A DNA stretch of 64,000 nucleotides from Mesorhizobium sp. SARCC-RB16n (GTDB lineage Bacteria; Pseudomonadota; Alphaproteobacteria; Rhizobiales; Rhizobiaceae). The stretch lies in the NCBI RefSeq assembly GCF_008520305.1, contig NZ_ML703262.1:36657-100656 (forward strand). Reading direction: 5' to 3'. Position numbers and translations under genes: made by a program. Positions 3,265 through 25,964 of the stretch are shown one piece after another (position 1 is the stretch's first letter; every line of letters starts with the position of its first letter). Below the pieces are notes generated by a model, which saw only the letters and a program-made list of their open reading frames with translations, searched no databases and was not told where the DNA came from.

Positions 3265-3268
3265 CCGA

Positions 3269-3634: not shown

Positions 3635-3903
3635 TCGAAGTTGTCGCTACAGCATCTCGAGCGCAAGCCGACCGGCAGGCTGGCGATCGGGCTGACGCCG
3701 GATGCCAACCGCCTCGCCCGCCGCACTTCGTTACGGGATCGCTGCCCGGCGAAACCGGGAGCGCCGTGAGGCACCTTACGACGAGCTTACCGGCAACAAA
3801 ATGGAGCATCGCGATCGGCTACAAGCATTCGCTCTGACCGCACTGGCGAGGGAACAGGCCGGGACGGCAGCGCCAGCCTGTGCACTCCGCGAGACCAGAA
3901 AAA

Positions 3904-3988
3904 TGGTGCCCCTAGCCGGGATCGAACCAGCACTCCTTGCGGAACTCGATTTTGAGTCGAGCGCGTCTACCAATTCCGCCATAGGGGC
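3904..3988 (-). tRNA. tRNA-Leu(CAA)
   Basis: An 85-nt cloverleaf including an encoded 3' CCA (TGG at 3904-3906 on the plus strand). Acceptor arms GCCCCTA/TAGGGGC pair perfectly. The anticodon stem CTCGA/TCGAG encloses the loop CTCAAAA, giving anticodon CAA for UUG codons. The long variable arm (TCCGCAAGGAG) is typical of class II tRNA-Leu, and GGTTCGATCCC is the T arm. The gene's 3' end faces the sugar cassette across a 269-bp stretch with no convincing gene. Confidence 0.95.
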
Positions 3989-4016
3989 TCAGGCCGGGCG
4001 GCCTGGATGGGCGCGG

Positions 4017-4044
4017 ACTATACGGTCGGAGGCCTGTTCGTCAA
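4017..4044 (-). promoter_or_regulatory. Sigma-70-type promoter of tRNA-Leu
   Basis: On the minus strand TTGACG (4039-4044) and TATAGT (4017-4022) are separated by 16 bp. This would place the transcription start about 20 nt upstream of the mature tRNA 5' end. Both boxes are close to consensus and no competing gene lies between. The call rests on sequence pattern only. Confidence 0.65.
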
Positions 4045-4217
4045 CTGGCCAATTCTCGGTATCGCACAGGATGCGACCAATCTTCACCTTTCGATTTCAT
4101 GGCGCTGCTGCCATTGTGCAGCGCGGAAAATCTTTCTAGACAAGCGGCGCATCAAAGCGCGGCGTGTCCGGAGACATGGGTGCGACGCAGTTTGGGCCAC
4201 ATGCACTAGGAGAGCCG

Positions 4218-4811
4218 ATGCTTCGCGGACTGTACGACTGGACCCTGTCGCTGGCGGCCCGCAAATCCGCCGAATGGTGGCTGGCCTTCATCGCCTTCGT
4301 CGAGAGCTCGGTATTCCTTGTGCCGGCCGACGTGCTCTATCTGCCGATGGCATTGTCGCGGCCGGACCGGGCCTATCGCTATGCCTTCATTGCCACCGTC
4401 GCATCGGTGCTGGGCGGCATTGCCGGCTGGTTCATCGGTCACTACGCCTATGACGCGGTGGCGCGGCCCATCCTCGAATTCTACGGCAAGTATGACGAGT
4501 TCGAGCAGTTGCGCTCCTCGGCGGGCATGAGCATCGAGTTCATCGCCCTGATGCTGGTCACCTCGGGTGCGGCGCATCTGCCACCCATCAAGGTGGTGAC
4601 GATCCTGTCCGGCGCCCTGGGCGTCAACCTGGCGCTGTTCATCGTGCTGGCCATCATCGCGCGCGGCGGTCGCTTCCTGCTCCTGGCGTGGCTTTTGCGC
4701 CGTTATGGCGAGCCAATCCGCGAGTTCATCGAAAAGCGCCTGGGCTTACTCGCCGGCGCCGCCGCGGTTGCCCTGATTTTGCTCTATATCCTGATCAAAT
4801 ACGCCCTCTGA
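4218..4811 (+). CDS. YqaA/DedA-type SNARE-associated inner-membrane protein
   Basis: A 197-residue integral membrane protein of the YqaA branch of the DedA/VTT superfamily. The N-terminal FIAFVESSVFLVPADVLYLPM and the later LMLVTSGAAHLPPIKVVTILSGALG are the re-entrant and helical segments typical of this group. DedA-related proteins are linked to lipid-carrier or phospholipid scrambling, but this member's substrate is unknown. ATG 4218 is chosen because of the AGGAG at 4208-4212; an upstream in-frame ATG at 4164 lacks support. The next gene, dsbB, follows on the same strand after 63 nt. Confidence 0.85.
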   Translation: MLRGLYDWTLSLAARKSAEWWLAFIAFVESSVFLVPADVLYLPMALSRPDRAYRYAFIATVASVLGGIAGWFIGHYAYDAVARPILEFYGKYDEFEQLRSSAGMSIEFIALMLVTSGAAHLPPIKVVTILSGALGVNLALFIVLAIIARGGRFLLLAWLLRRYGEPIREFIEKRLGLLAGAAAVALILLYILIKYAL

Positions 4812-4874
4812 GGCTCTCCCAGAACCGGGTGACGGTTTTGAGAGGCCAAGCTGGCTTGGCGGAGGGCGAACACA

Positions 4875-5405
4875 ATGAACGAGAGACCCATGACAGCGAC
4901 CATGAATGCCGACGGACGCCAGCGAACACGCACCGCCTTGTTTCTCGCGGTCGCGATGGCCGCGACCGTTGGCTCGGCGCTCGGCTTCCAGCACATTGGC
5001 GGCTACATCCCCTGCCATCTCTGTCTGGAACAGCGCACGCCGTATTACATCGGCGTGCCGTTGATGGTGCTGGCGGCGATCGCATCGACGCTGAGTGCAC
5101 CCGCATGGCTGACGCGCGGCCTGCTGGTCATTGGCGGCCTCTTGATGCTCTACGGCCTCTATCTCGGCGTCTACCACTCCGGCGTCGAATGGGGCTGGTG
5201 GCAGGGTCCGGCCGATTGCACGGCGGGCGCCGGCCCAGTCGACACCGGCGGCAAGGGCGTGCTCGACGCGCTCGACAAATTCGTGCCGCCCTCCTGCGAC
5301 AAGGCCGCTTTGCGCATCCTCGGCCTGTCACTGGCCGGCTGGAACGCCATCGCCAGCCTGATCCTGGCCGCCGTAGCCTTCCGCGGCGCATTTTCGCGCG
5401 ATTAA
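4875..5405 (+). CDS. dsbB: Disulfide bond formation protein B
   Basis: A 176-residue inner-membrane quinone-linked thiol oxidase with four membrane helices. Two periplasmic cysteine pairs fit the DsbB mechanism: C47/C50 in PCHLC, and C115/C141 in ADCTAG and PPSCDKA. It would reoxidise a DsbA-type protein and pass electrons to ubiquinone. The N-terminus is somewhat long; ATG codons at residues 6 and 10 are alternative starts, while GGAGGG about ten bases upstream supports 4875. It probably shares a transcript with the YqaA gene. Confidence 0.85.
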   Translation: MNERPMTATMNADGRQRTRTALFLAVAMAATVGSALGFQHIGGYIPCHLCLEQRTPYYIGVPLMVLAAIASTLSAPAWLTRGLLVIGGLLMLYGLYLGVYHSGVEWGWWQGPADCTAGAGPVDTGGKGVLDALDKFVPPSCDKAALRILGLSLAGWNAIASLILAAVAFRGAFSRD

Positions 5406-5556
5406 CCAGCGCGACGCAGAGTTCGTCCAGAAATTCGGCAGGCTGAGTCGGATGGCGCGGGTTTCGAGAACCGGAGCGGAGCGTACTTAAGTACGTGAGC
5501 ACCGGAAGCGCAGAAAGCTGCGTCAGGCGGCCGGCATGGCGGATTTCTGCCGAACT
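5406..5556 (+). repeat. Intergenic imperfect palindrome between dsbB and the HNH gene
   Basis: This short non-coding stretch separates two convergent genes. At its centre is the perfect palindrome GTACTTAAGTAC (5483-5494), flanked by partly complementary arms (ACCGGAGCGGAGC and GAGCACCGGAAGC). Outer segments also match in inverted order: AATTCGGCAG near 5433 and CTGCCGAACT near 5550. No open frame is convincing. It resembles a mobile intergenic palindrome; a bidirectional terminator is possible, although no long T tract is visible. Confidence 0.5.
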
Positions 5557-6138
5557 CTATGGCTCCAGTTCGACATCCCAGTAGAGATAGTCCATCCAGC
5601 TTTCATGCAGATGGTTGGGCGGGAACAGCCGGCCGTTGTTGTGCAAATCATGCACAGTCGGCTGATACGGCTTTTGCAGCGGCCACATCTTGGCTTGCGA
5701 CGGCATCATGCCGCCCTTCCTGAGATTACAAGGCGAACAGGCGGCGACGACGTTCTCCCATGTCGTGGCACCGCCACGATGGCGAGGAATGACATGGTCG
5801 AAGGTCAGGTCGTCGGGCGTGCTGCAATACTGGCACTGGAAACGATCGCGCAGGAAGACGTTGAAGCGGGTAAAGGCGGGATGCCTCGACGGCTTCACAT
5901 AGGCCTTCAGGCTGACCACGCTCGGCAGCTTCATCGAGAAGGTCGGCGAGGACACTGCGTGTTCGTATTCGGCGACAATGTTCACGCGATCGAGGAACAC
6001 CGCCTTGATGGCATCCTGCCAGGACCAGAGCGACAAGGGGTAATAGCTGAGCGGACGGTAATCCGCATTCAGCACCAGCGCTGGAAGCCCATCCGGAGAT
6101 ACGGCAACCGTCACCTTGTTGACCTCCTTGGTTCGCAC
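5557..6138 (-). CDS. HNH endonuclease
   Basis: A 193-residue protein with an HNH nuclease domain at about residues 90-155. Zinc-type pairs CQYC and CSPCN flank the beta-beta-alpha metal core LTFDHVIPRHRGG, where the DH pair and later Asn (TWENVVAAC) are the catalytic positions. The N-terminal third (LVLNADYRPLSYYPLSLWSWQDAI) is characteristic of a widespread chromosomal HNH family in alphaproteobacteria whose cellular role is not settled. It is a stand-alone gene converging on dsbB, not part of a phage or intron context here. Confidence 0.9.
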   Translation of the reverse strand: MRTKEVNKVTVAVSPDGLPALVLNADYRPLSYYPLSLWSWQDAIKAVFLDRVNIVAEYEHAVSSPTFSMKLPSVVSLKAYVKPSRHPAFTRFNVFLRDRFQCQYCSTPDDLTFDHVIPRHRGGATTWENVVAACSPCNLRKGGMMPSQAKMWPLQKPYQPTVHDLHNNGRLFPPNHLHESWMDYLYWDVELEP

Positions 6139-6179
6139 ATGGTCCCGAAAATCGAATTCGACTTTCGGAAAGGATCACG
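6138..6179 (+). repeat. Palindromic intergenic repeat, degenerate copy
   Basis: CCCGAAAATCG and CGACTTTCGG form inverted arms within CATGGTC...GGATCACG. This is the diverged form of the CCGAAAAG palindrome seen several more times in the window (for example near 41961, 49704, 59259 and 63842). It abuts the start codon of the HNH gene, so it lies in that gene's 5' region. The remaining bases to 6302 show no gene. Confidence 0.55.
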
Positions 6180-6302
6180 CGCTGCTTCAAAAGCCCGACC
6201 GTTCGGCGCGGATACTGTAAGCCTGACATGACAGGGATGTGAAGCGGATTGTCGCTTGCGCGACGTGCCAAAAACGCATGTTTTTTATGCTTTTTTGCGG
6301 AT

Positions 6303-6944
6303 TCAGGCCGGCGGCGCGGCGTCCCGGCCCCGGGTTTCGCGATAGTAGGACCAGAAAAGCCGCGATGCGACACCTCGCCACGGGCTCCATGATTCGGCCA
6401 GTGCGATCAGTGTTTTCTCCGGCGGACGTGGGTCGATGCCGAGCGCGTGGCCGACAGCGCTCTGCAAAGCAACGTCGCGCGCCGGGAAAATATCGGGGTG
6501 CCCGGCGGCAAACAACAGATACACTTCCGCCGTCCAGGGACCGATACCGGGCACGGCCGTCATCCTGGTGATTGCCTCTCCGGCGTCGAGCGAACAAAGG
6601 TGATGGAGGTCGAGCCCGTTGGCCACCGCCTGTGCAACCGCGATCAGGCCGCGCTGCTTGGGCCGCGACAGGCCGGCCTCGCGAAACATGTCCTCGCCGG
6701 CGGCAAGGATCGCCTGCGGCGTCAGCGGATCGACCAGTTTTGTCAGCCGGCCGAAGATTGCATCGGCGCTGGCCCGCGACACCTGCTGCGAGACAATGAT
6801 CGAGGCCAGGCTCCTGAAGCCGGGCTCCGAAAGCCTGAGCGGCACCTCGCCGGCCATGCCGCGCACTTTTTCCAGGCGCGGGTCGAGCGCGCAAAGCGCA
6901 TCGAGCCCCCGCTCAACGTCGTCCAGTGTCGCGATGCGCTGCAT
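6303..6944 (-). CDS. DNA-3-methyladenine glycosylase II (AlkA/HhH-GPD)
   Basis: A 213-residue base-excision repair glycosylase that removes alkylated purines. It contains the helix-hairpin-helix MTAVPGIGPWTAEVYLL (about residues 128-144) followed by the catalytic aspartate D157 in FPARDVALQ. SIIVSQQVS is the conserved early helix of this superfamily. ATG 6944 has AAGGA just upstream; a longer frame reaching 7079 would add about 45 non-homologous residues. It is divergent from gluQ. Length fits bacterial enzymes lacking the AlkA N-terminal domain. Confidence 0.9.
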   Translation of the reverse strand: MQRIATLDDVERGLDALCALDPRLEKVRGMAGEVPLRLSEPGFRSLASIIVSQQVSRASADAIFGRLTKLVDPLTPQAILAAGEDMFREAGLSRPKQRGLIAVAQAVANGLDLHHLCSLDAGEAITRMTAVPGIGPWTAEVYLLFAAGHPDIFPARDVALQSAVGHALGIDPRPPEKTLIALAESWSPWRGVASRLFWSYYRETRGRDAAPPA

Positions 6945-15380: not shown

Positions 15381-17354
15381 TCACGATGCCGCGGCGAGCG
15401 GCTCGGCTGGTTCTGACCTGTCGTCGCTGATCTTGCCGTCCGGCGCCACCGAAACGCATCCGCGGCCGGCCGCCTTGGCCGCATAGCAGGCGGCGTCTGC
15501 CCTTGCGATAATCTCGTCGACTTCGCCGCAATTGGCACAGATCGCCGTCAGCCCGATGCTGGCGCCGATCGCGTGCGACCGCCCATCCCAGCTGAAGTTC
15601 AGTCCCGCTATCGCATCGATGATGGAGCGCGCCGCGATCCTCGCGCCTGATGTGGAACCCGACTTCAGGATAACAGCGAATTCGTCGCCACCCAGGCGCG
15701 CGACGATGTCTTTAGGACCAAGAACGCCGCGCACGGCCTCAGCAACCCGCTTCAGTAGGGCGTCTCCGGCAGCGTGACCGCCCGTGTCGTTGACCAGCTT
15801 GAAATGGTCAAGGTCGATGTACATGAACTGATGGCGGCCTCCAACGGCCGCGTCGTCCTTGCGCGCCTGATCGACCAATCCCTCCATGGCGCGGATGAAG
15901 CTCGAGCGGTTGGCAAGGCCGGTTAGCGCATCATGCGCCGCCGCATGGGCAAGCTGGCGCTGCAGCGCGCGCGCATCGGTGAAATCCTGGAAGACGATCA
16001 CCAGTCCGCCGAATTCGTTGCGCTCGTTGATGATCGGCGACACGATCTGGCGGATGCTGCAGCGTGTGTCGTCGTGCCGGATGAGGACCGCGCGGCTGTT
16101 CTGGTCGGAGCGCGCCTCCTCGCCTGTCACGAGGCGCGTCATGCCGATCCTGTGGCCCGTCTCCTCGTCGACCGCCCAGTAGACGTGGCTCAGCGTCTTG
16201 CCCAGCGCCTCGTCGCTGGAAACGCTGGTCAGCTTTTCGGCCACCGGGTTCATGAAGGTGACGCGGTTCGCGGCATCGGTGCAGATGACCGCATCGCCGA
16301 TCGATTGCAGCGTCACCCTCAGCCGCTCCTTCTCGTCGGCCAGCATCGCCGCCGAGACGATGAGCCGTTCTTCAGCCTGCTTGCGCCGGGTGATATCGGT
16401 CAAGCTGCCGATCGCCCTGATCAACTGTCCGTCCGCATCGCGCTCGATGGCCTTGCCGCGGTCCAGGATCCAGATCCAGCGGCCATCCTTGTGGCGCATC
16501 CTGAACTCGGCCTCGAAGAATTCCGTCTTGCCGTCGAGATGGGCGCGATCGGCCTCCGCGACCGCGGCGCGGTCGTCCGGATGGATCATCGTCAGCCAGC
16601 GATCGGGGTCGCCATCGAGCTCGCCATCCCCGTAGCCCAGCATCTTCACCCAGGTGGAGGAATAGGTGGTGCCGCCCTTGCGCATGTCGAAATCCCAGAC
16701 ACCTTGCCCGGCGCCTGCGAGCGCGAAATTCCAGCGCGTTTCCGCCTCGGCGATGCGCGCTTCGGCCTGCTTGCGCGCGTCGATGTCCTCGATTTGCGAG
16801 ACGAGATAGAGCGGCCGGTCGCTTTTCTCGTCCCGGATGACCGATCCGGCGAGGTGGGCCCAAATCGGTGTGCCATCCTTCTTCAGGTAACGCTTCTCGA
16901 ATTGGAAGGCGTTGACGGTGCCGGCTCTCATGCTTTCCATGGTTTCCCGGCCGATCTGCAGATCGTCGGGATGCGTCAGCTGGAAGAAGGTCAGCGCCTC
17001 GATTTCCTCGCGGCTGTAGCCAAGCATGGCGGCGAAGGCTGGGTTGGCCTGGAGAATACGCCCGTCGAGGCTGACGATGGCGATGCCGATGGCCGAGTCC
17101 TCCATGGCTCGGCGGAACCGCTGCTCGCTTTCCGCGATCTGCCGCCGGTCGTCAGAGATGCGCGTAATGAACAGGGCGGCGAGCAGGAGCGCGCCGGCGG
17201 CCAATGCGAACGACACCCGAAGGCAGAGCCCGAGCGCCTCGGCGCCAAGGTCCAGCCTCGGCAGCACGATAGAGGCCGCCGCCGCAGCAAGGCCGGCCAC
17301 AGTCAAGGCCAGCGCCGCGTGTCCGTGAGGCCTGATGAGTCCTCGTAATCTCAC
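15381..17354 (-). CDS. Membrane-anchored PAS-PAS-PAS-GGDEF diguanylate cyclase
   Basis: A 657-residue signalling protein. Two membrane helices lie at about 14-32 and 43-64, followed by three PAS/PAC units (about 74-200, 205-330, 345-470; each of the first two ends near RKQAE). A GGDEF domain carries an intact GGDEF at 555-559, preceded by YIDLDHFKLVNDTGGHAAGD. It should make cyclic di-GMP. The inhibitory I-site RxxD is absent: the corresponding residues are GPKD, so product inhibition may be lost. No EAL domain is present. The gene converges on hbdA. Confidence 0.92.
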   Translation of the reverse strand: MRLRGLIRPHGHAALALTVAGLAAAAASIVLPRLDLGAEALGLCLRVSFALAAGALLLAALFITRISDDRRQIAESEQRFRRAMEDSAIGIAIVSLDGRILQANPAFAAMLGYSREEIEALTFFQLTHPDDLQIGRETMESMRAGTVNAFQFEKRYLKKDGTPIWAHLAGSVIRDEKSDRPLYLVSQIEDIDARKQAEARIAEAETRWNFALAGAGQGVWDFDMRKGGTTYSSTWVKMLGYGDGELDGDPDRWLTMIHPDDRAAVAEADRAHLDGKTEFFEAEFRMRHKDGRWIWILDRGKAIERDADGQLIRAIGSLTDITRRKQAEERLIVSAAMLADEKERLRVTLQSIGDAVICTDAANRVTFMNPVAEKLTSVSSDEALGKTLSHVYWAVDEETGHRIGMTRLVTGEEARSDQNSRAVLIRHDDTRCSIRQIVSPIINERNEFGGLVIVFQDFTDARALQRQLAHAAAHDALTGLANRSSFIRAMEGLVDQARKDDAAVGGRHQFMYIDLDHFKLVNDTGGHAAGDALLKRVAEAVRGVLGPKDIVARLGGDEFAVILKSGSTSGARIAARSIIDAIAGLNFSWDGRSHAIGASIGLTAICANCGEVDEIIARADAACYAAKAAGRGCVSVAPDGKISDDRSEPAEPLAAAS

Positions 17355-17454
17355 GATTTATGCCACCCCCGTGGGCAATCGCTTTTCCCCGTTAAAACCT
17401 TGAAGGATCGATTTTAAGGAAAGGTTGCGCCCGGAGCATCGGCGACATGGGAAA

Positions 17455-17472
17455 CCGGCAAACAATTGCCGG
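17455..17472 (-). terminator. Hairpin downstream of the sigma/anti-sigma pair
   Basis: Read leftward, CCGGCAA-TTGT-TTGCCGG forms a perfect 7-bp hairpin followed by TTTCCC. It lies about 45 nt after the NrsF-like stop codon. The T run is short, so this is a weak intrinsic terminator candidate. Confidence 0.45.
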
Positions 17473-17517
17473 CATGATTAAGGATCGGTATTCACGGGGT
17501 GTGGCGCAGGTATCCTG

Positions 17518-18156
17518 CTACCAACGCACGAAAAACCGCCCGCCGAGCGCACCGAGCAAGGCAAGAGCGGCGATGGCGATCGTGTACCAGGTTGCAACGA
17601 AAAGCGGCGAGTCGTCGAAGCAGTGCGCGGCATAAAAGGTCGCCGCCAGCCCGCCAGCAAGCAGCCCGGCGACCGCGCCGGCAAGAACCGGCCGTGTCGG
17701 CGCGCCATAGCGTAGCATCCACAGGAAGATGGCCAGCGGGCCGATGCCGATCAGCGGGATGAAGCTCATGCAGATCATCATGTTCGAGCCGATCATGCGC
17801 GTGCTCCACAGCGCCTGCGGCACCATGAAGAGTTCCAGCACCACGGCAACCGCGACCAGCAGCGGCGCGATGATCATCGCCACCATTGCCCGGCCTGTCG
17901 TCGCACCCGGCGTCGACAGGGCTCTGATCAGGGCAAAGGCGCTGATGGCGAGCACGATGGTGAAAACGAACTTGGACAGGAAGCGTATCGTGTGTGCGGC
18001 CGCCATGAAGTCGGGGCGTGGCCCGATAGTCATCATGAAAACAACCGCCGCGACGACGACGGCTACACCGGCCGCCAGCCACCAGGCGGAGCGCAATGGC
18101 ATCGCCTTGCTGCGGGCATCGGCGTCGAGCGCCTTGATGAGATCGTCGGTCTTCAT
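17518..18156 (-). CDS. NrsF-family (DUF1109) anti-sigma factor
   Basis: A 212-residue protein with a short cytoplasmic N-terminus (MKTDDLIKALDADARS) and six membrane helices. This matches NrsF/DUF1109 anti-sigma factors that hold an ECF sigma factor at the membrane, as for Caulobacter SigF. LSKFVFTIVLAISAFALIRAL and ELFMVPQALWSTRMIGSNMMICM are typical. It follows the sigma gene with one base between stop and start, so the two are translated as a pair. The family's link to metal or oxidative stress sensing is known from homologues; the signal here is inferred. Confidence 0.88.
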   Translation of the reverse strand: MKTDDLIKALDADARSKAMPLRSAWWLAAGVAVVVAAVVFMMTIGPRPDFMAAAHTIRFLSKFVFTIVLAISAFALIRALSTPGATTGRAMVAMIIAPLLVAVAVVLELFMVPQALWSTRMIGSNMMICMSFIPLIGIGPLAIFLWMLRYGAPTRPVLAGAVAGLLAGGLAATFYAAHCFDDSPLFVATWYTIAIAALALLGALGGRFFVRW

Positions 18157-18157
18157 G

Positions 18158-18709
18158 TCATTCCCGTCCGAACCGCCCTTGTCCGAATCGCTTGGCTATA
18201 GCGGTAAGCCCCCGGTGCAGCGACACACGCACCGCCGTCTCGCTGATGCCGAACTTCGCCGCCGTCTCGCCGATCGAGCGTCCTTCCACGGACACGGCCG
18301 AAACCACGGAACGCTGCGCCGGCGGCAGTCCGTCGAGCGCCCGGTTGATGTCGCGTTCGCTGACCGTGTCGGTCTCCGGCTCGGCAAAAGTCTCGGCGAT
18401 GTCGTCGACATCGATCTCGATGCGCCGCCCACGCCGCCGGAACGCGTCGATCAACTTGAAACGGGCAATCGCGTAGACCCAGGGCAACACCGGCGCGTCC
18501 TGACGCCAAGTGTGTCGTTTCACATGAATGGCCAGCAAGGTTTCCTGCACGACATCCTCGGGATCGACCCCGCCGTGCACGATCTTGCGCCTGACAAAGC
18601 CGCGGATCAGCGCGGCAATCCGGTGAAGAAAGTCGGCATAGGCCTTTTCATCTCCCGCGATCGCGGCCCGCATCAGCCGGGAAAGCTCGGCCTCGTCCTT
18701 GCCGCTCAC
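18158..18709 (-). CDS. ECF RNA polymerase sigma factor (SigF-like)
   Basis: A 183-residue group 4 sigma factor. Region 2 includes GGVDPEDVVQETLLAIHVKR and WVYAIARFKLIDAFRRRGRR for -10 recognition. Region 4 has LPPAQRSVVSAVSVEGRSIGETAAKFGISETAVRVSLHRGLTAI for -35 binding. The GTG start at 18709 follows GGGGAG about nine bases upstream. It pairs with the NrsF-type anti-sigma factor next door. Its first 16 codons are part of a 149-bp block duplicated at 21934-22082, beyond an inserted gene cassette. Confidence 0.92.
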   Translation of the reverse strand: MSGKDEAELSRLMRAAIAGDEKAYADFLHRIAALIRGFVRRKIVHGGVDPEDVVQETLLAIHVKRHTWRQDAPVLPWVYAIARFKLIDAFRRRGRRIEIDVDDIAETFAEPETDTVSERDINRALDGLPPAQRSVVSAVSVEGRSIGETAAKFGISETAVRVSLHRGLTAIAKRFGQGRFGRE

Positions 18710-18810
18710 AAGAGTTCACTCCCCGATCTTCGCGCCTCGGCACTGATTTGTTACGTGGCCGGCGAAATAATGTCCAAGGCAAAGTACCGGCAAATCACGA
18801 AAGTTTGCGG
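18662..18810 (+). repeat. 149-bp direct repeat, left copy (sigma gene 5' end and promoter)
   Basis: This block matches 21934-22082 base for base with no indels and only six mismatches by eye. It contains the first 16 codons of the ECF sigma gene, its ribosome-binding region, its promoter, and about 55 bp further upstream. It forms the left edge of the ATP-grasp/GNAT/P450 cassette. The right copy is followed by what is presumably the original upstream flank of the sigma gene. Confidence 0.92.
18729..18754 (-). promoter_or_regulatory. Likely autoregulated ECF promoter of the sigma/NrsF operon
   Basis: On the minus strand GTAACA (18749-18754) and CGAA (18729-18732) are separated by exactly 16 bp, and the CGAA lies about 20 bp before the GTG start. 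GTAAC-N16-CGAA resembles the promoter recognised by Caulobacter-type SigF sigma factors. In the right-hand copy of the repeat the -35 reads TTAACA, a change at a key position. Confidence 0.55.
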
Positions 18811-18831
18811 CGGTTGCCTGCCGCCAGCGCT

Positions 18832-19878
18832 TTAGCTCCTGCGTTTTCCCACATCGGTCGATGCCTTTGCGGCCAGCACGACATCCTTGAAAAAGCTCAA
18901 GCCCTTGCGAACCGTCAGCTTCACGCGTCTTCGGCGATATTTGATTCGCAGGCGGCCCAGAATATCCAGATGTGCCCTGTCGATGTCCGGATCAGAAACG
19001 GGATCATGCGCATATGGTAGCCGCGCCAAGGCATCTGCATGCATGTTGGCGTAGGGCACCGAATCGTAAGTGTCGAAAACTGTGGGCGGATAATTCAACA
19101 CGGTAGGGTTGGTGTTGATCTCGAACACCTGGATGCGACCGTCGACAACGGTGTAATCAATTCGGCCGTATGAAATCCTGGCCTTCTCGAAAATCGGCAC
19201 CAGCTCGGCCGCGTGCGGGTTGTCGCGAACGTAGGCTGCGTGCTCGGACAGATGCTCTCCCGTCATCGCCCTGCCTGGATCCTTTATGAACCAATCGTGA
19301 CTGGCAAAACAGTGCTGTGCATAGCCGTGGTCACCTATGCGATATGCCGCGTATTTGCGGTAACAACCGTCGCGATACGGCTTTGATCCAAATTCCACCA
19401 CCATGGGACGGACAAAGCTCAAGGCGCTTAAATTGGAAAGTTCGTTGCGGAGTTCGGCAGGCGAGCGCAACAGCCGCGGAGTCTTGTAGGTAGCGCCAGC
19501 CTCATCGCGCAGGAAGACAGGAAAACGTATCTCCCCCGGTAGGCCCTCGGGTCGGTACACGTTGAAATCATTGGTGCCGTCGGCGTACAGCGTACGCAGC
19601 AGATCGAACCGCTGCAGTGTCTCTCCCGGGTGATTGAGTTGGAGCAGACCGGGTTGCCGCAATTTCATTTGCTCGCTGAGACCGGCGCTCGATTCTATCT
19701 CGAATTTACTCAGGCGATCCAAATCGGTCCAGATGGCTGTGCCGTTCGGTATTGCGAGCAGATGGACCCTATTTTCATAGGGGACAAAGCGGACAAAGTC
19801 CTGCAGGTCAGCCCGGAAATAGAGGAGCAGGCTTGCCAGGGTATTGGCATGTGAACGATGGCAAATGTAAAAAATCAC
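18832..19878 (-). CDS. ATP-grasp-fold protein of unknown specificity
   Basis: A 348-residue soluble protein. Its C-terminal half has ISYGRIDYTVVDGRIQVFEINTNPT, the ATP-grasp pattern in which an acidic residue and the ExN pair bind Mg-ATP. Upstream, YRKYAAYRIGDHGYAQHCFASHDWF looks like the nucleotide-binding strand pair. ATP-grasp enzymes join a carboxylate to an amine, thiol or similar group. The far C-terminus (residues about 310-348) is basic. GTG 19878 has AGGGGG upstream. It is divergent from the GNAT-P450 operon and shares a 78-bp intergenic region. No closer family can be named by eye. Confidence 0.75.
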   Translation of the reverse strand: MIFYICHRSHANTLASLLLYFRADLQDFVRFVPYENRVHLLAIPNGTAIWTDLDRLSKFEIESSAGLSEQMKLRQPGLLQLNHPGETLQRFDLLRTLYADGTNDFNVYRPEGLPGEIRFPVFLRDEAGATYKTPRLLRSPAELRNELSNLSALSFVRPMVVEFGSKPYRDGCYRKYAAYRIGDHGYAQHCFASHDWFIKDPGRAMTGEHLSEHAAYVRDNPHAAELVPIFEKARISYGRIDYTVVDGRIQVFEINTNPTVLNYPPTVFDTYDSVPYANMHADALARLPYAHDPVSDPDIDRAHLDILGRLRIKYRRRRVKLTVRKGLSFFKDVVLAAKASTDVGKRRS

Positions 19879-19956
19879 GAGACACGCCCCCTATGTGCTC
19901 ACTAACAGATAATGTAAAAATTCAGTTCATGGCAGACTGGTGAGCAGCACTCCACG

Positions 19957-20610
19957 ATGACAACGGTCGCATTTCGTCAACCCGTCGAACACAACATTCC
20001 AGACATGGTTGCGATGGAGACCGCAACTTGGGGGAGCCTTGGCGCCAGCGAAGAAACGATCCGGCGTCGGCTTTCAGTTGGACATACAATGATCCTGGCC
20101 ATGGTTGGGAACCTTGTTGCCGGTGCTATCTGCTTCGTGGAGACCAGCCAGGATCCTCACGATACGGAGAAGTTCCCGAAGACCTTCTCGGCCTATTCTT
20201 CGCTTGCCCGCACCGGACCGGCGCGGTCGCTCTACGTTTACAACCTCGGTTTGCGGCCCGATTTTCGCGGCACCGACATGGCACGCCGTCTCTTGTCGCA
20301 ACTGATAGGCTACGGCCATCGGGTTGGCGCCCGCTGGCTGGTCGGCGATGGACGCTGCCCGTCCTACGCCGGATCCCAAGACGATTTTCCCAACAAGGTT
20401 CGGCCGGATCTGGCGTTTCGCCAGACCATCGACGACTGGCATCGGACCGGCGTGATGCCTTCGGTCACGTCGATAACAAGGGATCCGCTATTGCGATTCT
20501 ACAGGCGTGTTCTGCAATGCGAATTCCTGCATCTGGCGCCCAGTTTTCTACCGCAGGACATAAGTTCCGGCGGGTTTCGCGTCATCTTTGCCGTTGATCT
20601 CGCCCGATGA
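19957..20610 (+). CDS. GNAT-family N-acyltransferase
   Basis: A 217-residue protein with the GNAT core. A beta-strand, LYVYNLGLRPDFRGTDMARRLLSQLI, gives the acyl-CoA pyrophosphate-binding signature (RPDFRGTDMA), preceded by TMILAMVGNLVAGAICFVE. The region DGRCPSYAGSQDDFPNKV and the C-terminus are not typical of the well-known ribosomal or drug acetyltransferases, so the acceptor is unknown. Its stop overlaps the P450 start (ATGA), which implies translational coupling. Transferring an acyl group to a product of the divergent ATP-grasp enzyme is a reasonable inference. Confidence 0.8.
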   Translation: MTTVAFRQPVEHNIPDMVAMETATWGSLGASEETIRRRLSVGHTMILAMVGNLVAGAICFVETSQDPHDTEKFPKTFSAYSSLARTGPARSLYVYNLGLRPDFRGTDMARRLLSQLIGYGHRVGARWLVGDGRCPSYAGSQDDFPNKVRPDLAFRQTIDDWHRTGVMPSVTSITRDPLLRFYRRVLQCEFLHLAPSFLPQDISSGGFRVIFAVDLAR

Positions 20611-21833
20611 CGGTCCAGACCGATCTTTTCGACCCTTTCGCCCTTGGCAGCGATCCCTTTCCGGAATTCGCTCACCGTCGGAAAGAGGGAGGGGGCAGTT
20701 GGGGCAAGCCTCCTTATCCGGAGGTCGGCGTCGCCTTCTACGTGTTCAGCCACGCACTCGTATCGGAAGCCTTGAAGCACCCGTTGTTGTTGCAGGCACC
20801 GCCCGGCACCTACCAAGAAGTCAGGCAGAAGATCAGCGCCAGTCCGGCATTGGATCTGTTGACCCATTCCATGCTTCTGTCCGACCCGCCGCAACACATG
20901 CGCCTGCGCCGCCCACTTGCTGGTTCCCTGACGTTTTCAGCGGGCAGAGGACTGTTCGACGGACTTATGGCAAAAGCAACGGAACTGACGTTGGCGGCTT
21001 CACGAAAGCCAAGGTTCGACGCTATTCGTGACATAGGTCTGCCGCTGTCGTTTTCAGGCCTTGAGCAACTCCTTGGCATGGATATCGATGATCCCTGGCG
21101 GATCGGAAGCGACGCCCAGCGTATGGCGAAGGCCTTGGAGATACGGGCTGGTGGTATCGACAACGATGCCAATGAGGCCTGCCGCCGGCTGGAGGCATGG
21201 GTATCGCAAGCGATAGAACAGGGTTGCGTCCGCCCAAACGGCATTTCGGCTCAGATGCTCGCCGAGGTCGAGGCCGGTCGCTGGCAGAGAGACGACGCCA
21301 TAGCAAACATCGTTTTTCTGCTCTTTGCCGGGCAGGCGACGGTGGTCGACACGTTTGGCAACGCGCTGGTAGCGCTTGCAAGCTCGCCGGAGCAGCTGTC
21401 GTTGCTCGAAGACGGGAATGTCGACTGGTCATCTGCAACAGAAGAACTGCTCCGTTTTTGTGCGCCGGTGCACTATGCCGGAGCCCGTATTGCCTCGGGA
21501 GATCTGCGGATCGGCGGCGCGACCATACGAGCCGGACAGGCAGTCGTGCCTGTTTTGGCGAGCGCCAACCGCGATGTTTCGGTCTTTCCGGGTGGCGACC
21601 GCCTGGATCTGCGCTCCGGTGTTTCGTCGGCTCTTGCTTTCGGCACCGGGCTTCATGCCTGTCTTGGTCAGCATGTTGCACGGGTAGAACTGGCAGTGCT
21701 GCTGGAAGCCCTTTTTACGCAGGCAAAAGGCTGGCGCCTGGATATCCCCAAGGTCGCCAGGCGGCACTCGGTGCTCTTTTACGGTTTGGAAACAGCACCA
21801 ATGATCCTGTCCGTGGACCGGCCATCAGCTTGA
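20607..21833 (+). CDS. Cytochrome P450 with an altered I-helix
   Basis: A 408-residue bacterial class I type P450. The heme ligand is C352 in FGTGLHACLGQ, the K-helix ExxR is E280-R283, and HMRLRR (97-102) is the heme-propionate region. The I-helix reads LLFAGQATVVDT: the conserved acidic residue of AGxE/DT is Ala244, although Thr245 is kept. That may change oxygen activation or indicate peroxide-type or other unusual chemistry. There is no fused reductase or adjacent ferredoxin, so electrons must come from elsewhere. It is translationally coupled to the GNAT gene. Confidence 0.92.
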   Translation: MTVQTDLFDPFALGSDPFPEFAHRRKEGGGSWGKPPYPEVGVAFYVFSHALVSEALKHPLLLQAPPGTYQEVRQKISASPALDLLTHSMLLSDPPQHMRLRRPLAGSLTFSAGRGLFDGLMAKATELTLAASRKPRFDAIRDIGLPLSFSGLEQLLGMDIDDPWRIGSDAQRMAKALEIRAGGIDNDANEACRRLEAWVSQAIEQGCVRPNGISAQMLAEVEAGRWQRDDAIANIVFLLFAGQATVVDTFGNALVALASSPEQLSLLEDGNVDWSSATEELLRFCAPVHYAGARIASGDLRIGGATIRAGQAVVPVLASANRDVSVFPGGDRLDLRSGVSSALAFGTGLHACLGQHVARVELAVLLEALFTQAKGWRLDIPKVARRHSVLFYGLETAPMILSVDRPSA

Positions 21834-21933
21834 GCGGCGCCCGTTCGTGCGCTTGTATCACGAGGAATTGTTGGCCCGCCGCAAGAGTTCATGCCTTAGC
21901 GACTGATTGAAGCAGGTTATAAATGTCGACTGA

Positions 21934-22082
21934 CGCGGCCCGCATCAGCCGGGAAAGTTCGGCCTCGTCCTTGCCGCTCACAAGAGTTCACTCCCCGATC
22001 TTCGCGCCTCGGCACTGATTTGTTAAGTGGCCGGCGAAATAATGTCCAAGCCAATCTACGGGCAAATCACGAAAGTTTGCGG
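21934..22082 (+). repeat. 149-bp direct repeat, right copy (orphan sigma promoter)
   Basis: The second copy of the block at 18662-18810. It carries only the first 16 codons of the ECF sigma gene, so it is a non-coding remnant. Its -35 hexamer is changed from GTAACA to TTAACA, and four other mismatches cluster near 22051-22060. The interval 21834-22210 around it has no convincing gene: 21834-21933 is the cassette's right end and 22083-22210 is probably the original sigma upstream flank. Confidence 0.92.
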
Positions 22083-22210
22083 AATGGCCCGCGAAATTCC
22101 CTGACGGGTTTTCTGGTTCCGAGCCCGGACATGAGGAACAGCGCGGACCAAGCATTCATTGACGTAAGGTAAGCCCTTCTGTAGCGTCAAATGATCGGAG
22201 GGACGCCGAA

Positions 22211-22348
22211 ATGGATTTCGTTGAACGCATTTTTGGATTTTCTCCCGACAATGGCTCGGGAACTTTCGAGGGCAGCCTTGTCAGTGCAGCCATAGTCCTT
22301 GTCGCTTTCGTCTACTTCTACAGAAGACAGAGATCACTGAAGAAATAG
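22211..22348 (+). CDS. 45-residue membrane microprotein
   Basis: A short open frame with GGAGGG (22197-22202) eight bases before its ATG. The product begins MDFVERIFGFSPDNGSG, has one hydrophobic helix (LVSAAIVLVAFVYFYR), and ends in a basic tail RRQRSLKK, so an N-out/C-in single-pass topology is likely. Small proteins with this type of start appear to be common in rhizobial genomes (recollection, not checked). No function is known. It is followed on the same strand by two unknown envelope-type genes. Confidence 0.72.
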   Translation: MDFVERIFGFSPDNGSGTFEGSLVSAAIVLVAFVYFYRRQRSLKK

Positions 22349-22423
22349 CCTCTGGAAAATCGGCGGGGACACGTCCGCCAGGAAAACATTACCGTTGCGT
22401 CCTCTCAGCGTGGGAAACACGAC

Positions 22424-23473
22424 ATGGCAGGATCTCTGGTCAACCACGTCAGAACCGCGGCCCTGCTGTTGTTCGCCTCCGAATTCTGGAAGCGTCTTGC
22501 CGCCGGGCTGAAGGTACTATTTGCAACGATTTGCATGCTGCTGTGCCGGCTGGCCAAGCGCCGGCGGCTGCCAAGCCCGGCGCAGAACGATTGCTGTATT
22601 CAACTGCCGCCCGACATCTACAAGCGCGCCGATCCTCTTCTCTACGCCCAGTACTATCTGATGGCGCAGGGACTCGCGGTCACCTGGGACAATCCCGACA
22701 TCGACATTTTCGACGGCGCCGCACCAGTCACCGGTGCGCTCCAGCCAGCACATACCTATCGCGTGCGTGTGCGCGTCTGGAACGGGTCCTATGATGCCCC
22801 GGCCGTCGGCGTCGGGGTGGCGCTGTCCTACCTGTCCTTCGGCGCACAGACCGTTTCCCGTCCGATCGCCAACACCGCCGTCAATCTCGGGGCCAAGGGT
22901 ACGATCGATTGCCCTGCCTATGCCGAGTTCAGTTGGACCACGCCCGCCACCGGCGGCCACTACTGCCTCCAGGCACAGCTTTCCTGGGGCGATGACGCCA
23001 ACCCCAGCAACAACCTTGGCCAGAAGAACGTCAACATTGCCGAGATGCGCTCACCGGCAAGGTTCGTCTTCAGCGTCCGCAACGAGGCCTCGGTCGTCCG
23101 GCGTTTCCAGATCGAGGCGGACTGCTACGGCCTGCCGAAGCTGCGGCCATGTGCCCCGCTACGCGGCCAAGGTCGAGACGAGCGCACGGACAACCCGCAG
23201 CCGCGGCTGGCCGAGAGCAAGGCGCGCTGGGCCAGGGCCCTCGAGGAACAGGCCTATGGCCGGTTTCCCGTCCCGGACGATTGGTCGGTCAGGATCGTTC
23301 CAAGAACGCTTTCACTCCAGCCACGCCAGATCACCGAGATCACCGTCGAGATCGAACCGAGGGACGCCGCCTTCCGCGGCTCGAAGACCTTCAACGTCCA
23401 TGTCTTCACGATCGGCGAAAGCGGATCACGCACCATGACCGGCGGTGTGACGCTCACCGCCACGAAAGGCTGA
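22424..23473 (+). CDS. Unknown membrane-anchored protein with CARDB-like beta domain
   Basis: A 349-residue protein. A hydrophobic stretch at about residues 28-42 (LKVLFATICMLLCRL), followed by KRRR, suggests a membrane anchor. Residues about 75-205 read like a CARDB/Ig-like beta-sandwich (HTYRVRVRVWNGSYDAPAVG, then SWGDDANPSNNLGQKNVNI). The C-terminal part (DDWSVRIVPRTLSLQPRQITEITVEI) looks like a second beta domain. No catalytic motif is visible. It is 10 nt upstream of the glycine-zipper gene, so the two probably form one unit. No specific function can be assigned. Confidence 0.68.
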   Translation: MAGSLVNHVRTAALLLFASEFWKRLAAGLKVLFATICMLLCRLAKRRRLPSPAQNDCCIQLPPDIYKRADPLLYAQYYLMAQGLAVTWDNPDIDIFDGAAPVTGALQPAHTYRVRVRVWNGSYDAPAVGVGVALSYLSFGAQTVSRPIANTAVNLGAKGTIDCPAYAEFSWTTPATGGHYCLQAQLSWGDDANPSNNLGQKNVNIAEMRSPARFVFSVRNEASVVRRFQIEADCYGLPKLRPCAPLRGQGRDERTDNPQPRLAESKARWARALEEQAYGRFPVPDDWSVRIVPRTLSLQPRQITEITVEIEPRDAAFRGSKTFNVHVFTIGESGSRTMTGGVTLTATKG

Positions 23474-23483
23474 GGGCGCTCCG

Positions 23484-24836
23484 ATGGCCTACAAGCACTA
23501 TACGAGCTGCTTTCTCTATCCGGCCGGTGGCAAGCCCTACAATGAGGACGACCGGCTGGCTTTCCTCGCCGGCCAGGCGCTGCAGATCATCGTCATCACC
23601 GGGCTGGCAGCCGTTTTCGGCTTGCTGCTGGGCCCGGTCGGTGCAGCACTTGCCGCGGCAATCGCATTTCTGGCGTCCGCCACCGCGACGATCGACAAGG
23701 CCGCCGGGGAATGGCTCAACCATCGCCTGGTCTGCCTCGACAAGGACAATCCGAAATGCGCCGTCGGCATCGTCTCCTACAATCCGTTCCGCAGCGATCT
23801 CGGTGCCTTCGACAACGACCAGTATTTCGACGTCATACTGATGCCGCATCCGACGACTGAAATCCTCAACGCCGAGACCAACGAGGCGGCTTTGGCGGCC
23901 GCCAATCGCTACAATGCCGACGGCACCGTCGTCGCCGAATACGCCGCCAACATCGCGGCCCATCCGGCGAACGACATTCTCAACGACGGCTTTCAGGGCC
24001 ATGAGTTGCTGTTGCCGCGCGATGACCTGAAGACGGACCTGGGCTACGCAACCGCCGACGATCATGCCCGCTGGGGCCTGCACTGCGAGGCCGAGGGCGA
24101 CTTCTGGATCAAGATGCGGCAATGGGCGCCGGCCATCGTCATCTTGCTGACGGCGGCCCTGGTCGTCACGGCGGCCGCGGCGGCCGCCGGCGCCAGTATC
24201 GGGGCGGCTGTCGGCTGCGCCATAGGTTCGTTCTTCCTGGGCGCGCTGGGCTGCGCCATCGGCTCGTTCCTGGGAGGATTGCTCGGAGCGGCTATTGGCG
24301 GCGCCATCGGCGGAGCGGCGTCCTACTTCGGCGGAGTCAAGCCGGTACTACAAGGGTTGTTCAACTGGAACCCCGGCAATGTCGAGGACGCCAATGTCGG
24401 CGACAAGGCGCTCGGCCCCATCAGGATGGGCGATCATGTGGCAGTCCTCGGCGAACATGTCTATGACGGCTATCACAAGGGCTGGCACGAGTTTCATCCG
24501 CTGATGGCGGTGGTCAAATTCGATGCAGCCGCCGGTGTCGACGCAAAACACTATCTTCTGTGGAGTCCGGACTTTTCCGACACGGGCACGATCCCGCCCA
24601 AACCGCCGGGCGAGGCCACCGACCTCACCGCGCAGGATATGCGTGACGGGCTCGGCAGCGCCGCGTTCAGGACACGCTGCGAAAATCTGCGCAGAACCTG
24701 GTGCGCCATGCTGAACGAAGCATTCGATCCGGAGACCAAACGAACACAACAGGGGCTGGATCAGCGCTGGACCATTCATCCGATGATCGATGGTTGCATC
24801 CCGCAGGAGCAGCCACCAGCACCGCATATCGGGTGA
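23484..24836 (+). CDS. Unknown protein with long glycine-zipper membrane region
   Basis: A 450-residue protein. Hydrophobic helices occur at about residues 32-66. A long Gly/Ala zipper spans about 210-280 (repeating AIGSFFLGALGCAIGSF and LLGAAIGGAIGGAAS). Soluble regions surround these, including a Cys-containing C-terminus (TRCENLRRTWCAMLNEAFDPE). Glycine zippers pack tightly in membranes and occur in pore-forming and envelope-spanning proteins. No domain is recognised with confidence. The short spacing to the preceding CARDB-like gene suggests a two-component envelope system. Confidence 0.68.
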   Translation: MAYKHYTSCFLYPAGGKPYNEDDRLAFLAGQALQIIVITGLAAVFGLLLGPVGAALAAAIAFLASATATIDKAAGEWLNHRLVCLDKDNPKCAVGIVSYNPFRSDLGAFDNDQYFDVILMPHPTTEILNAETNEAALAAANRYNADGTVVAEYAANIAAHPANDILNDGFQGHELLLPRDDLKTDLGYATADDHARWGLHCEAEGDFWIKMRQWAPAIVILLTAALVVTAAAAAAGASIGAAVGCAIGSFFLGALGCAIGSFLGGLLGAAIGGAIGGAASYFGGVKPVLQGLFNWNPGNVEDANVGDKALGPIRMGDHVAVLGEHVYDGYHKGWHEFHPLMAVVKFDAAAGVDAKHYLLWSPDFSDTGTIPPKPPGEATDLTAQDMRDGLGSAAFRTRCENLRRTWCAMLNEAFDPETKRTQQGLDQRWTIHPMIDGCIPQEQPPAPHIG

Positions 24837-24890
24837 TGCCATCGGCAACGGACATGCGAAACCGTGATCATGCCGATTGCCTTTCAATCT

Positions 24891-24905
24891 TGACTAACCC
24901 ATTCA
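24891..24905 (+). promoter_or_regulatory. IRO-type iron-responsive operator (TGA-N9-TCA)
   Basis: TGACTAACCCATTCA matches the rhizobial IRO box TGA-N9-TCA bound by RirA. It overlaps a TTGACT -35 (24890-24895), with a weak CTACTC -10 17 bp downstream. It lies 51 bp before the start of the iron-binding protein gene, so iron repression of the importer is expected. This is pattern-based. Confidence 0.6.
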
Positions 24906-24956
24906 TGAATTGCTACTCGGACGCACCCGCAGTGCGGGCAACCCGAGGAGTACCTG

Positions 24957-25964
24957 ATGAAATCCCCCTTTCTTGCCCTGGCCAGCGTAGCGGCGCTCGC
25001 AATCAGTCTGGCCGCCGGTCCGGCGACGGCCGAGGATGCCGGCATCATCGTCTATAACGCCCAGCATGAAAGCCTGGCCAAGGAATGGGCCGAAGGGTTC
25101 ACCAGGGACACCGGCATCAAGGTCACCTTGCGCAATGGTGGCGACAGCGACTTCTCCAACCAGATCGTCGCCGAAGGCGCCTCCTCACCCGCCGACGTGT
25201 TTCTGACGGAAAATTCGCCGGCCATGGTGCTGGTCGAGAATGCCGGCCTGTTCGCGCCGGTCGACGCAGACACGCTGGCGCAGGTCCCGCGGGATTATCA
25301 GGCAGCCAGCGCCAAATGGGTGGGCGTGGCCGCGCGCAGCACCGTTTTTGCCTACAACACGACCAAGCTCAAGGCCGACCAGTTGCCCAAGTCGATGCTT
25401 GATCTCGCCGACCCCAGCTGGAAGGGCCGCTGGGCGGCTTCGCCTTCCGGCGCCGATTTCCAGGCCATCGTCAGCGCGCTGCTGCAGCTCAAGGGCGAGG
25501 CCGCCACGGCCGATTGGCTGAAGGCAATGAAGGAGAACTTCACCGCCTACAAGGGCAACAGCACGGTGATGAAGGCGGTCAATGCCGGCGAGATCGAAGG
25601 CGGCTTGATCTACCACTATTACTACTTTGGCGATCAGGCCAAGACCGGCGAAAACTCCAAGAACGTTGCTCTGCACTATTTCAAGAACCAAGACCCGGGC
25701 GCTTTCGTATCGGTCTCCGGTGGCGGCGTGCTGGCCTCGAGCAAGCATCCCAAGGAAGCTCAGGCCTTCCTGAAGTGGGTGACCGGCAAGGGCGGCCAGG
25801 AAATCTTGAAGAACGGAACCTCCTTCGAATACGCGGTCGGCAAGGGCGCGGACTCCAATCCGAAGCTGGTGCCGCTGGCCGACCTGCAGGCGCCGAAGGT
25901 TGACGCCACGACGCTGAACTCCAAGAAGGTCACCGACCTGATGACGGCAGCCGGCTTGCTTTAG
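24957..25964 (+). CDS. fbpA: Iron(III) ABC transporter periplasmic binding protein
   Basis: A 335-residue periplasmic protein with a signal peptide (residues 1-25, cleaved near ATA-ED). The mature start IIVYNAQHESLAKEWAEGF and the cluster YHYYYFGDQ, with adjacent iron-ligand tyrosines, match FbpA/FutA ferric-binding proteins. It would deliver Fe3+ to the permease encoded downstream. GAGGAG lies before the ATG, and an IRO-type operator lies at 24891-24905. A strong hairpin after the stop probably reduces expression of the permease relative to this protein. Confidence 0.92.
   Translation: MKSPFLALASVAALAISLAAGPATAEDAGIIVYNAQHESLAKEWAEGFTRDTGIKVTLRNGGDSDFSNQIVAEGASSPADVFLTENSPAMVLVENAGLFAPVDADTLAQVPRDYQAASAKWVGVAARSTVFAYNTTKLKADQLPKSMLDLADPSWKGRWAASPSGADFQAIVSALLQLKGEAATADWLKAMKENFTAYKGNSTVMKAVNAGEIEGGLIYHYYYFGDQAKTGENSKNVALHYFKNQDPGAFVSVSGGGVLASSKHPKEAQAFLKWVTGKGGQEILKNGTSFEYAVGKGADSNPKLVPLADLQAPKVDATTLNSKKVTDLMTAAGLL

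What the first reader, a model, noticed from the sequence alone, without database searches (positions are those of the whole stretch)
18662..22082. Gene cassette held between two 149-bp copies of a sigma-factor promoter region
The block at 18662-18810 (first 16 codons plus promoter of the ECF sigma gene) recurs at 21934-22082 with six mismatches and no gaps. Between the copies lie only the ATP-grasp, GNAT and P450 genes. Copy 1 belongs to the intact sigma gene; copy 2 is a remnant beside what is probably the original upstream flank. The simplest reading is insertion of a segment carrying its own copy of the sigma 5' region, or a Campbell-type integration of a circle by recombination within the block. 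No recombinase gene is present.
Basis: partly seen in the sequence, partly recalled or inferred. Interest (0 to 1): 0.85.

Follow-up and report, generated by a model that had tools for sequence, protein, structure and literature searches.

The report
Second gene module stacked beside first
A three-gene module from another Mesorhizobium lineage seems to have been added next to, instead of in place of, the module already held at a variable spot on the chromosome, leaving a telltale 149-base duplication of the kind that ordinary recombination makes.

Summary
The repeat is real (18662-18810 and 21934-22082, 143 of 149 identical). The spot between a SigF-type ECF sigma gene and a divergent ABC binding-protein gene is a hotspot in this genus with no recombinase found. 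Of 130 relatives read across it, 103 carry no module, 9 the ATP-grasp/GNAT/P450 module (C), 9 a different pair of genes (F) and 9 a 6.1-kb module (D). None of 138 loci read has two block copies, and none of the 130 has both C and F. The window alone holds C and F in tandem. In relatives C lies directly beside the sigma block, and the window's C still ends in the first part of the ABC gene's upstream region, cut at 21931 and joined to sigma codon 16. So a 3,272-bp piece of a C-type chromosome was added to an F-type chromosome through the shared block, with no recipient DNA lost. Single-crossover (Campbell) integration of a circularised fragment fits best; a donor with a tandem duplication, an end-joining variant and a chimeric assembly are not excluded, and the donor is unsampled. 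Copy 2 has lost a SigF -35 base kept in 130 of 130 relatives. The mechanism is known; the stacked state is new among the genomes examined.

The parts
18158..18709 (-). ECF sigma factor gene, SigF type (NCBIfam NF009165, above its cut-off)
17518..18156 (-). NrsF-type anti-sigma gene next to the sigma gene (Pfam NrsF)
18662..18810 (.). block copy 1: sigma codons 1-16 plus promoter; positions 1-117 identical to F-type G001 and G006, three differences from them at 118, 123 and 127
18729..18754 (-). SigF-type promoter GTAACA-N16-CGAA in copy 1; the only GTAAC-N16..18-CGAA site in the window
   Evidence: published consensus GTAACC-N16-CGAA (PMC3511200, passages)
18832..19878 (-). ATP-grasp-like gene of module C (no Pfam or NCBIfam hit; ATP-grasp enzymes lead the Foldseek list of a low-confidence model)
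19957..20610 (+). GNAT-fold gene of module C; best structural matches are the GNAT-like domains of CurA, SxtA and GphF
20607..21833 (+). cytochrome P450 gene of module C, overlapping the GNAT gene by ATGA
21857..21931 (+). truncated copy of the ABC gene's upstream region as found in C-type and module-free relatives
21931..21934 (.). junction of the ABC upstream region with sigma codon 16; the two sides share no extended homology
21934..22082 (.). block copy 2: orphan sigma 5' end and promoter; right end F-type; -35 GTAAC changed to TTAAC
22083..24940 (+). module F (ORFs 22424-23473 and 23484-24836), the resident content in the window's nearest relatives
24957..25964 (+). ABC transporter solute-binding-protein gene, right border of the hotspot

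Best explanation
The intergenic space between divergent sigF and the ABC binding-protein gene is a permissive hotspot where relatives carry no module or one of three. SHOWN: the window's lineage is F-type; the window also has a C module with C-type context on both sides (sigma block on the left, start of the ABC upstream region on the right); no recipient DNA is missing relative to G094 and only the 149-bp block is duplicated. INFERRED: a 3,272-bp piece of a C-type chromosome (sigma codon 16 to the middle of the ABC upstream region) entered the cell, had its ends joined into a circle, and integrated by one RecA-type crossover in the 149-bp block, perhaps between about block positions 67 and 118. 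This left copy 1 beside the intact sigma gene and an orphan copy 2 that is decaying. The module was added, not exchanged.
For: Empty site with a single block: G094 matches window 16607-18810 and 21934-23583 contiguously, overlapping by the block. C-type loci: sigma-block-C-ABC in 9 genomes (same contigs under names). On the 130-row sigma tree the window groups with five F-type genomes (SH-aLRT 97), and the same five are closest over F and over the ABC gene, whereas its C module is sister to G014's with 100/100 support. The remnant matches 36 of 137 loci, all 36 at 50-79 bp before the ABC start, 33 of 36 ending at 21931. Copy 1's three differences from G001/G006 all fall at 118-127; at 127 it has the base of the four nearest C types (4 of 4) where 4 of the 5 nearest F types, and copy 2, have another. 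Linear DNA in E. coli can be ligated and integrated by single crossover, while homology-facilitated illegitimate recombination generally deletes recipient DNA (PMC3240628, introduction read); nothing is deleted here.
Against: The donor is not in hand: the closest C genes are 78.7-83.9% identical. The donor nature of copy 1's right end rests on few sites: over 118-149 copy 1 differs from G014 at 3 sites, no fewer than from G001 or G006, and its only exact match is the module-free G095; G123 with C127 occurs in 25 of 130 genomes, 1 of 9 C types among them. G118 occurs in no C or F type listed. Under a reciprocal crossover copy 2 should be donor-like on its left; only T25 suggests that (4 of 9 C types, 0 of 9 F types, 24 of 130 overall), and at 67 it has the F-type base. 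In a smaller 19-row sigma tree the window and the five F types are not resolved as one clade. A homology of 149 bp is short, the circle is not seen, and the window's own assembly is not held.
Confidence: 0.6

Rival explanations
1. A C-type donor already carried a tandem duplication of the 3,272-bp unit, and an ordinary double crossover (left in block 1, right in block 2) brought block-C-block into the F-type chromosome.
For: Predicts the same final structure and the same pattern in the two copies. [quoted passage not shown]
Against: None of the 9 C-type loci read has a second block or a second set of module genes.
Confidence: 0.17
2. One end of a linear donor fragment recombined in the block and its other end was joined illegitimately to the sigma gene of a sister chromosome (a homology-facilitated illegitimate or interchromatid event), so that copy 2 is wholly native.
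For: Copy 2 has the F-type base at 67 and 127. Interchromatid integration giving duplications is documented in pneumococcus (PMC3784515, passages), and homology-facilitated illegitimate recombination was proposed for stacked T6SS immunity genes (PMC5361080, passages).
Against: The usual product loses recipient DNA and in most cases shows 3-10 bp of microhomology at the joint (PMC3240628, introduction). Here nothing is lost relative to G094, the joint lies to the left of the crossover so that a second chromosome copy is needed, and microhomology cannot be read without the donor.
Confidence: 0.13
3. The composite is old in the F-type clade, and the relatives lost C by recombination between the two blocks.
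For: Such a loss would leave the single block seen in F-type genomes.
Against: F with a single block also occurs in four genomes other than the five closest (G109, G117, G135, G106), and several losses would be needed. Copy 2 differs from G001/G006 at 3 of 149 sites while the window differs from G094 at synonymous sites of sigF by 0.19, so the duplication looks younger than the split.
Confidence: 0.05
4. The junction is a chimera of assembly or amplification between a C-type and an F-type genome.
For: The source assembly and reads are not available, and no second strain shows the structure (0 of 138 loci).
Against: The joint at 21931/21934 has no extended shared sequence to mislead an assembler. 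Copy 2 and the remnant carry changes at sites kept in 130 of 130 and 122 of 123 relatives, as expected of real decaying remnants.
Confidence: 0.05

Closest known systems
Hotspots of gene turnover without mobile elements, diversified by homologous recombination in flanking core genes (Oliveira et al. 2017, PMC5635113; abstract and passages seen)
   Same: Alternative contents (none, C, F, D) between two conserved genes; no integrase or transposase among the ORFs scanned, no tRNA nearby.
   Different: In that model a double crossover replaces one content by another; in the window one module stands beside the other.
Single-crossover (Campbell) integration of a ligated linear fragment (PMC3240628, introduction read)
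   Same: Insert flanked by direct repeats of the homology, no recipient loss.
   Different: There a laboratory observation in E. coli; here inferred in nature, with 149 bp of homology and an unsampled donor.
Stacked T6SS effector-immunity modules of Vibrio cholerae, proposed to grow by homology-facilitated illegitimate recombination (PMC5361080; abstract and passages seen)
   Same: A new module anchored by a conserved upstream stretch leaves older genes downstream.
   Different: There the old effector is displaced and the immunity gene often kept; here the resident pair of genes is intact and the anchor block itself is duplicated.
Transformation-made merodiploids of Streptococcus pneumoniae (PMC3784515; abstract and passages seen)
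   Same: A donor fragment that is partly repeated in the recipient yields a duplication.
   Different: There mainly tandem duplications of about 100-900 kb of resident DNA; here a foreign module plus 149 bp.
SigF-NrsF sigma/anti-sigma pair of Caulobacter (PMC3511200; passages seen)
   Same: Gene pair and promoter motif, one base off the published consensus.
   Different: In the window a second, damaged promoter copy stands apart from any whole sigma gene.

Membership tests
Recombinase-free hotspot between core genes | several alternative contents between the same two conserved genes | tested here: met
   103 without module, 9 C, 9 F, 9 D of 130 loci
Recombinase-free hotspot between core genes | no integrase, transposase or tRNA at the site | tested here: met
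   No such Pfam hit in 8 window ORFs of the region or in 10 ORFs of one D locus; no tRNA in window 10000-32000. C and F loci of relatives were not scanned ORF by ORF
Recombinase-free hotspot between core genes | raised recombination in the flanking genes | not tested
   Only trees of the sigma gene were made; on the 130-row tree C carriers need 8 changes for 9 rows, and 99 of 500 shuffles were as low, which fits either repeated transfer or repeated loss
Campbell-type (single-crossover) integration | insert bounded by direct repeats of a homology shared by donor and recipient types | tested here: met
   149-bp block at both ends; one block in each of the C-type and F-type relatives
Campbell-type (single-crossover) integration | no recipient DNA lost | tested here: met
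   G094 empty site is contiguous with only the block overlapping
Campbell-type (single-crossover) integration | reciprocal hybrid repeats (native-donor, donor-native) | tested here: inconclusive
   Copy 1 is F-like to 117 and not F-like at 118-127; copy 2 is F-like at 67 and 127; its left end rests on one site, T25; copy 1's right end is no closer to G014 than to G001
Campbell-type (single-crossover) integration | a circular intermediate | not testable with these tools
   no reads or DNA
Homology-facilitated illegitimate recombination | deletion of recipient DNA at the insertion (general, not invariable) | tested here: not met
   no loss relative to G094
Site-specific mobile element or integron cassette | own recombinase or attachment site | tested here: not met
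   no recombinase among the module's ORFs; the ends are sigma and ABC context. blastn of the cassette against 72,556 plasmid records gave no match to it; a viral-contig scan with the P450 alone confirmed no relative

The most novel reading that the evidence does not exclude
The sigF promoter block works as a recombinase-free docking site: RecA crossovers between its copies pop the module out as a 3,272-bp circle and dock it beside whatever module another strain already has, so that the hotspot can stack modules as well as swap them.
Probability: 0.1. Interest if true: 0.6.

Novelty: new variant of a known kind. Interest (0 to 1): 0.38.

Why it matters
How hotspots without mobile elements gain genes is usually inferred from swapped contents, which leave little trace. 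This locus keeps the scar: both modules, a duplicated promoter block and a cut promoter region mark where the incoming piece began and ended. If the reading is right, such a spot can add a module without losing the old one, and there is a simple reversible test (recombination between the two blocks). The module itself (ATP-grasp-like, GNAT-fold, P450) recurs at about 50% identity at other places in six genomes of the genus, so it looks like a functional unit; its product is unknown.

Tried and rejected
Direct test in the window's own assembly: not held, so relatives of the same genus were used. A mobile element: no recombinase found, no tRNA, no plasmid carrier, no viral carrier of the P450. 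The viral scan found 4 pattern matches but no relative; the plasmid search gave only 4 Rhizobium replicons, each with one 147-bp match to the sigma part of the query.

Exact pattern of the block copies: donor alleles were sought in both. For copy 2's left only T25 qualifies. For copy 1's right end the nearest C type (G014) is no closer than the F types and the only exact match is the module-free G095, so the crossover model is not proven. Right-hand microhomology: unreadable without the donor.

ATP-grasp assignment: no Pfam or NCBIfam hit and no PDB sequence match of note; AlphaFold model poor (pLDDT 56), although ATP-grasp enzymes lead its Foldseek list with TM-scores of only about 0.2-0.3. 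Kept as 'ATP-grasp-like'. GNAT model better (pLDDT 81).

Scope: 6 of 146 genus genomes had no match; of the 140 with a match 138 were read, G012 and G062 were not. 'Two blocks' means within the stretch held around each sigma gene (roughly 2.6-9 kb), by blastn. Eight more divergent loci (L207-L214) show a sigma gene with no strong C, F or ABC match in the stretch read; seven hold one partial block and one, L214, none; they enter only the block count. L190 (G055) was dropped from the sigma tree because its match was too short; it is counted as module-free. Class D was first set by spacing; that the nine share the insert was then checked by blastn (99-100% coverage, 91-98% identity), and its genes were scanned in one of nine.

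Literature on this locus: searches (listings only) gave no paper that appears to describe it; that is a thin check of one open-access library.

Full report
WHAT IS THERE. The 149-nt block is present twice, at 18662-18810 and 21934-22082, with six mismatches and no gap; blastn finds no third copy in the window, only a 19-nt chance match. It holds the first 16 codons of an ECF sigma gene (18158-18709, minus strand) and its promoter. The sigma gene and its neighbour are a SigF-NrsF pair. The block contains GTAACA-N16-CGAA at 18754-18729, one base off the published SigF consensus GTAACC-N16-CGAA (PMC3511200, passages). GTAAC and CGAA stand 17 bases apart in 126 of 130 relatives and 16 apart in the other 4. 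It is the only GTAAC-N16..18-CGAA site in the 64 kb, where about 1.5 would be expected by chance at even base composition, so the motif rests on its position and conservation, not on rarity.

THE SITE IS A HOTSPOT. The interval between the sigma gene and a divergent ABC binding-protein gene was examined in 130 genomes of the genus (six F types and one C type re-read with longer flanks). 103 have no module, the ABC start lying 96-245 bp beyond the block. 9 have module C, 9 have module F, and 9 have a 6.1-kb module D; the nine D inserts are alike (91-98% identity), and the one scanned has arginase-family, NMT1-type ABC transport and HupE/UreJ genes. In the alleles inspected, modules sit between the end of the sigma block and a conserved element upstream of the ABC gene, whose TTGACT core is found within 140 bp of the ABC start in 122 of 123 loci then holding that gene. 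Both promoters thus appear spared. No relative has both C and F, and none of 138 loci (130 plus 8 more divergent ones) has two blocks.

THE WINDOW IS A COMPOSITE. From left to right it reads sigma, block 1, C, a cut ABC upstream region, block 2, F, ABC. In F-type G094 the corresponding sequence is continuous and overlaps by the block alone, so nothing was deleted. On the 130-row sigma tree the window falls with five F-type genomes (SH-aLRT 97); in a smaller careful tree of 19 rows that group is not resolved. The same five are closest over F (91.4-94.0%) and over the ABC gene (92.7-94.1%). C, by contrast, is shared at this site only with the C-type genomes; the closest is G014, sister with 100/100 support, at 78.7-83.9% DNA identity per gene. 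The C genes are intact and constrained (dN/dS 0.11-0.17 against G014).

THE SCAR ON THE RIGHT. After the P450 stop the window runs for 98 nt to 21931. This stretch, in most cases its last part, matches 36 of 137 loci (31 module-free, 5 C-type); in all 36 the match lies 50-79 bp before the ABC start, and in 33 of 36 it ends at 21931 (alignments). There it is joined to codon 16 of the sigma gene. The segment was therefore cut out of a C-type chromosome at two unremarkable places. It is not an element with ends of its own.

THE SCAR ON THE LEFT. Copy 1 is identical to F-type G001 and G006 at positions 1-117; its three differences lie at 118, 123 and 127. If spread evenly, three differences would all fall in the last 32 of 149 sites with a chance of about 0.01 (my arithmetic). 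At 67 both copies have the base of the five nearest F types, not that of the four nearest C types; at 127 copy 1 has the C-type base and copy 2 the base of four of the five F types. A switch from native to donor between 67 and 118 in copy 1 is therefore plausible. Against it: over 118-149 copy 1 is no closer to G014 (3 differences) than to G001 (3), its exact match is the module-free G095, and G123 with C127 is spread over 25 of 130 genomes, only one of them C-type. At the left of copy 2 only T25 points to a donor (4 of 9 C types, 0 of 9 F types, 24 of 130 in all).

DECAY. Copy 2 has lost the G of the SigF -35 element, a base kept in 130 of 130 relatives. The ABC remnant reads TCGACT where 122 of 123 loci have TTGACT. 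Both are expected of orphan promoters and argue against an artefact. Copy 2 differs from G001/G006 at 3 of 149 sites while sigF synonymous divergence from G094 is 0.19, so the event probably came after the window's lineage split from these.

HOW IT HAPPENED. A 3,272-bp C-type piece that carried its own block was added through the block. Single-crossover integration after circularisation explains a duplicated homology with no loss; ligation followed by single crossover is a described fate of linear DNA in E. coli, where the illegitimate alternative generally brings deletions (PMC3240628, introduction). A donor with a tandem duplication would give the same product. The ordinary route at such hotspots, replacement by double crossover in flanking genes (PMC5635113, passages), would have removed F. 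How the DNA entered is unknown.

THE MODULE. The triad, with the ATP-grasp-like gene divergent from a GNAT-P450 pair, recurs at about 45-54% protein identity elsewhere in six genomes of the genus (L052-L057) and in a MAG (L200); a second MAG (L201) has the three genes in another arrangement. The GNAT-fold protein is closest in predicted structure to the GNAT-like domains of CurA, SxtA and GphF, which hints at specialised metabolism; this is resemblance, not a test.

LIMITS. The donor, the reads and the source assembly are missing. Only one genome per species was examined. The claim that the stacked state is new holds for the 138 loci examined and the few literature searches made.

Noticed in passing
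L148 about 690-6700 (and 8 other genomes at the same site): Alternative module D with arginase-family, NMT1-like ABC transport and HupE/UreJ genes; it looks like uptake and hydrolysis of a nitrogen compound, possibly nickel-dependent (inference from recall).
   Followed up: partly
20607-21833: The P450 I-helix reads AGQAT in all 9 aligned homologues, without the acidic residue usual before the threonine (motif recalled).
   Followed up: no
22424-24836: The two genes of module F have no convincing Pfam or NCBIfam match; long matches to F were found in 9 of 146 genus genomes.
   Followed up: partly
18810-18832: The ATP-grasp-like gene ends 22 bp from the sigma block and points the same way as sigF, so read-through into sigF is possible.
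   Followed up: no
L190: G055 has a sigma gene with only a short match to the window's, perhaps a frameshift or assembly error.
   Followed up: no
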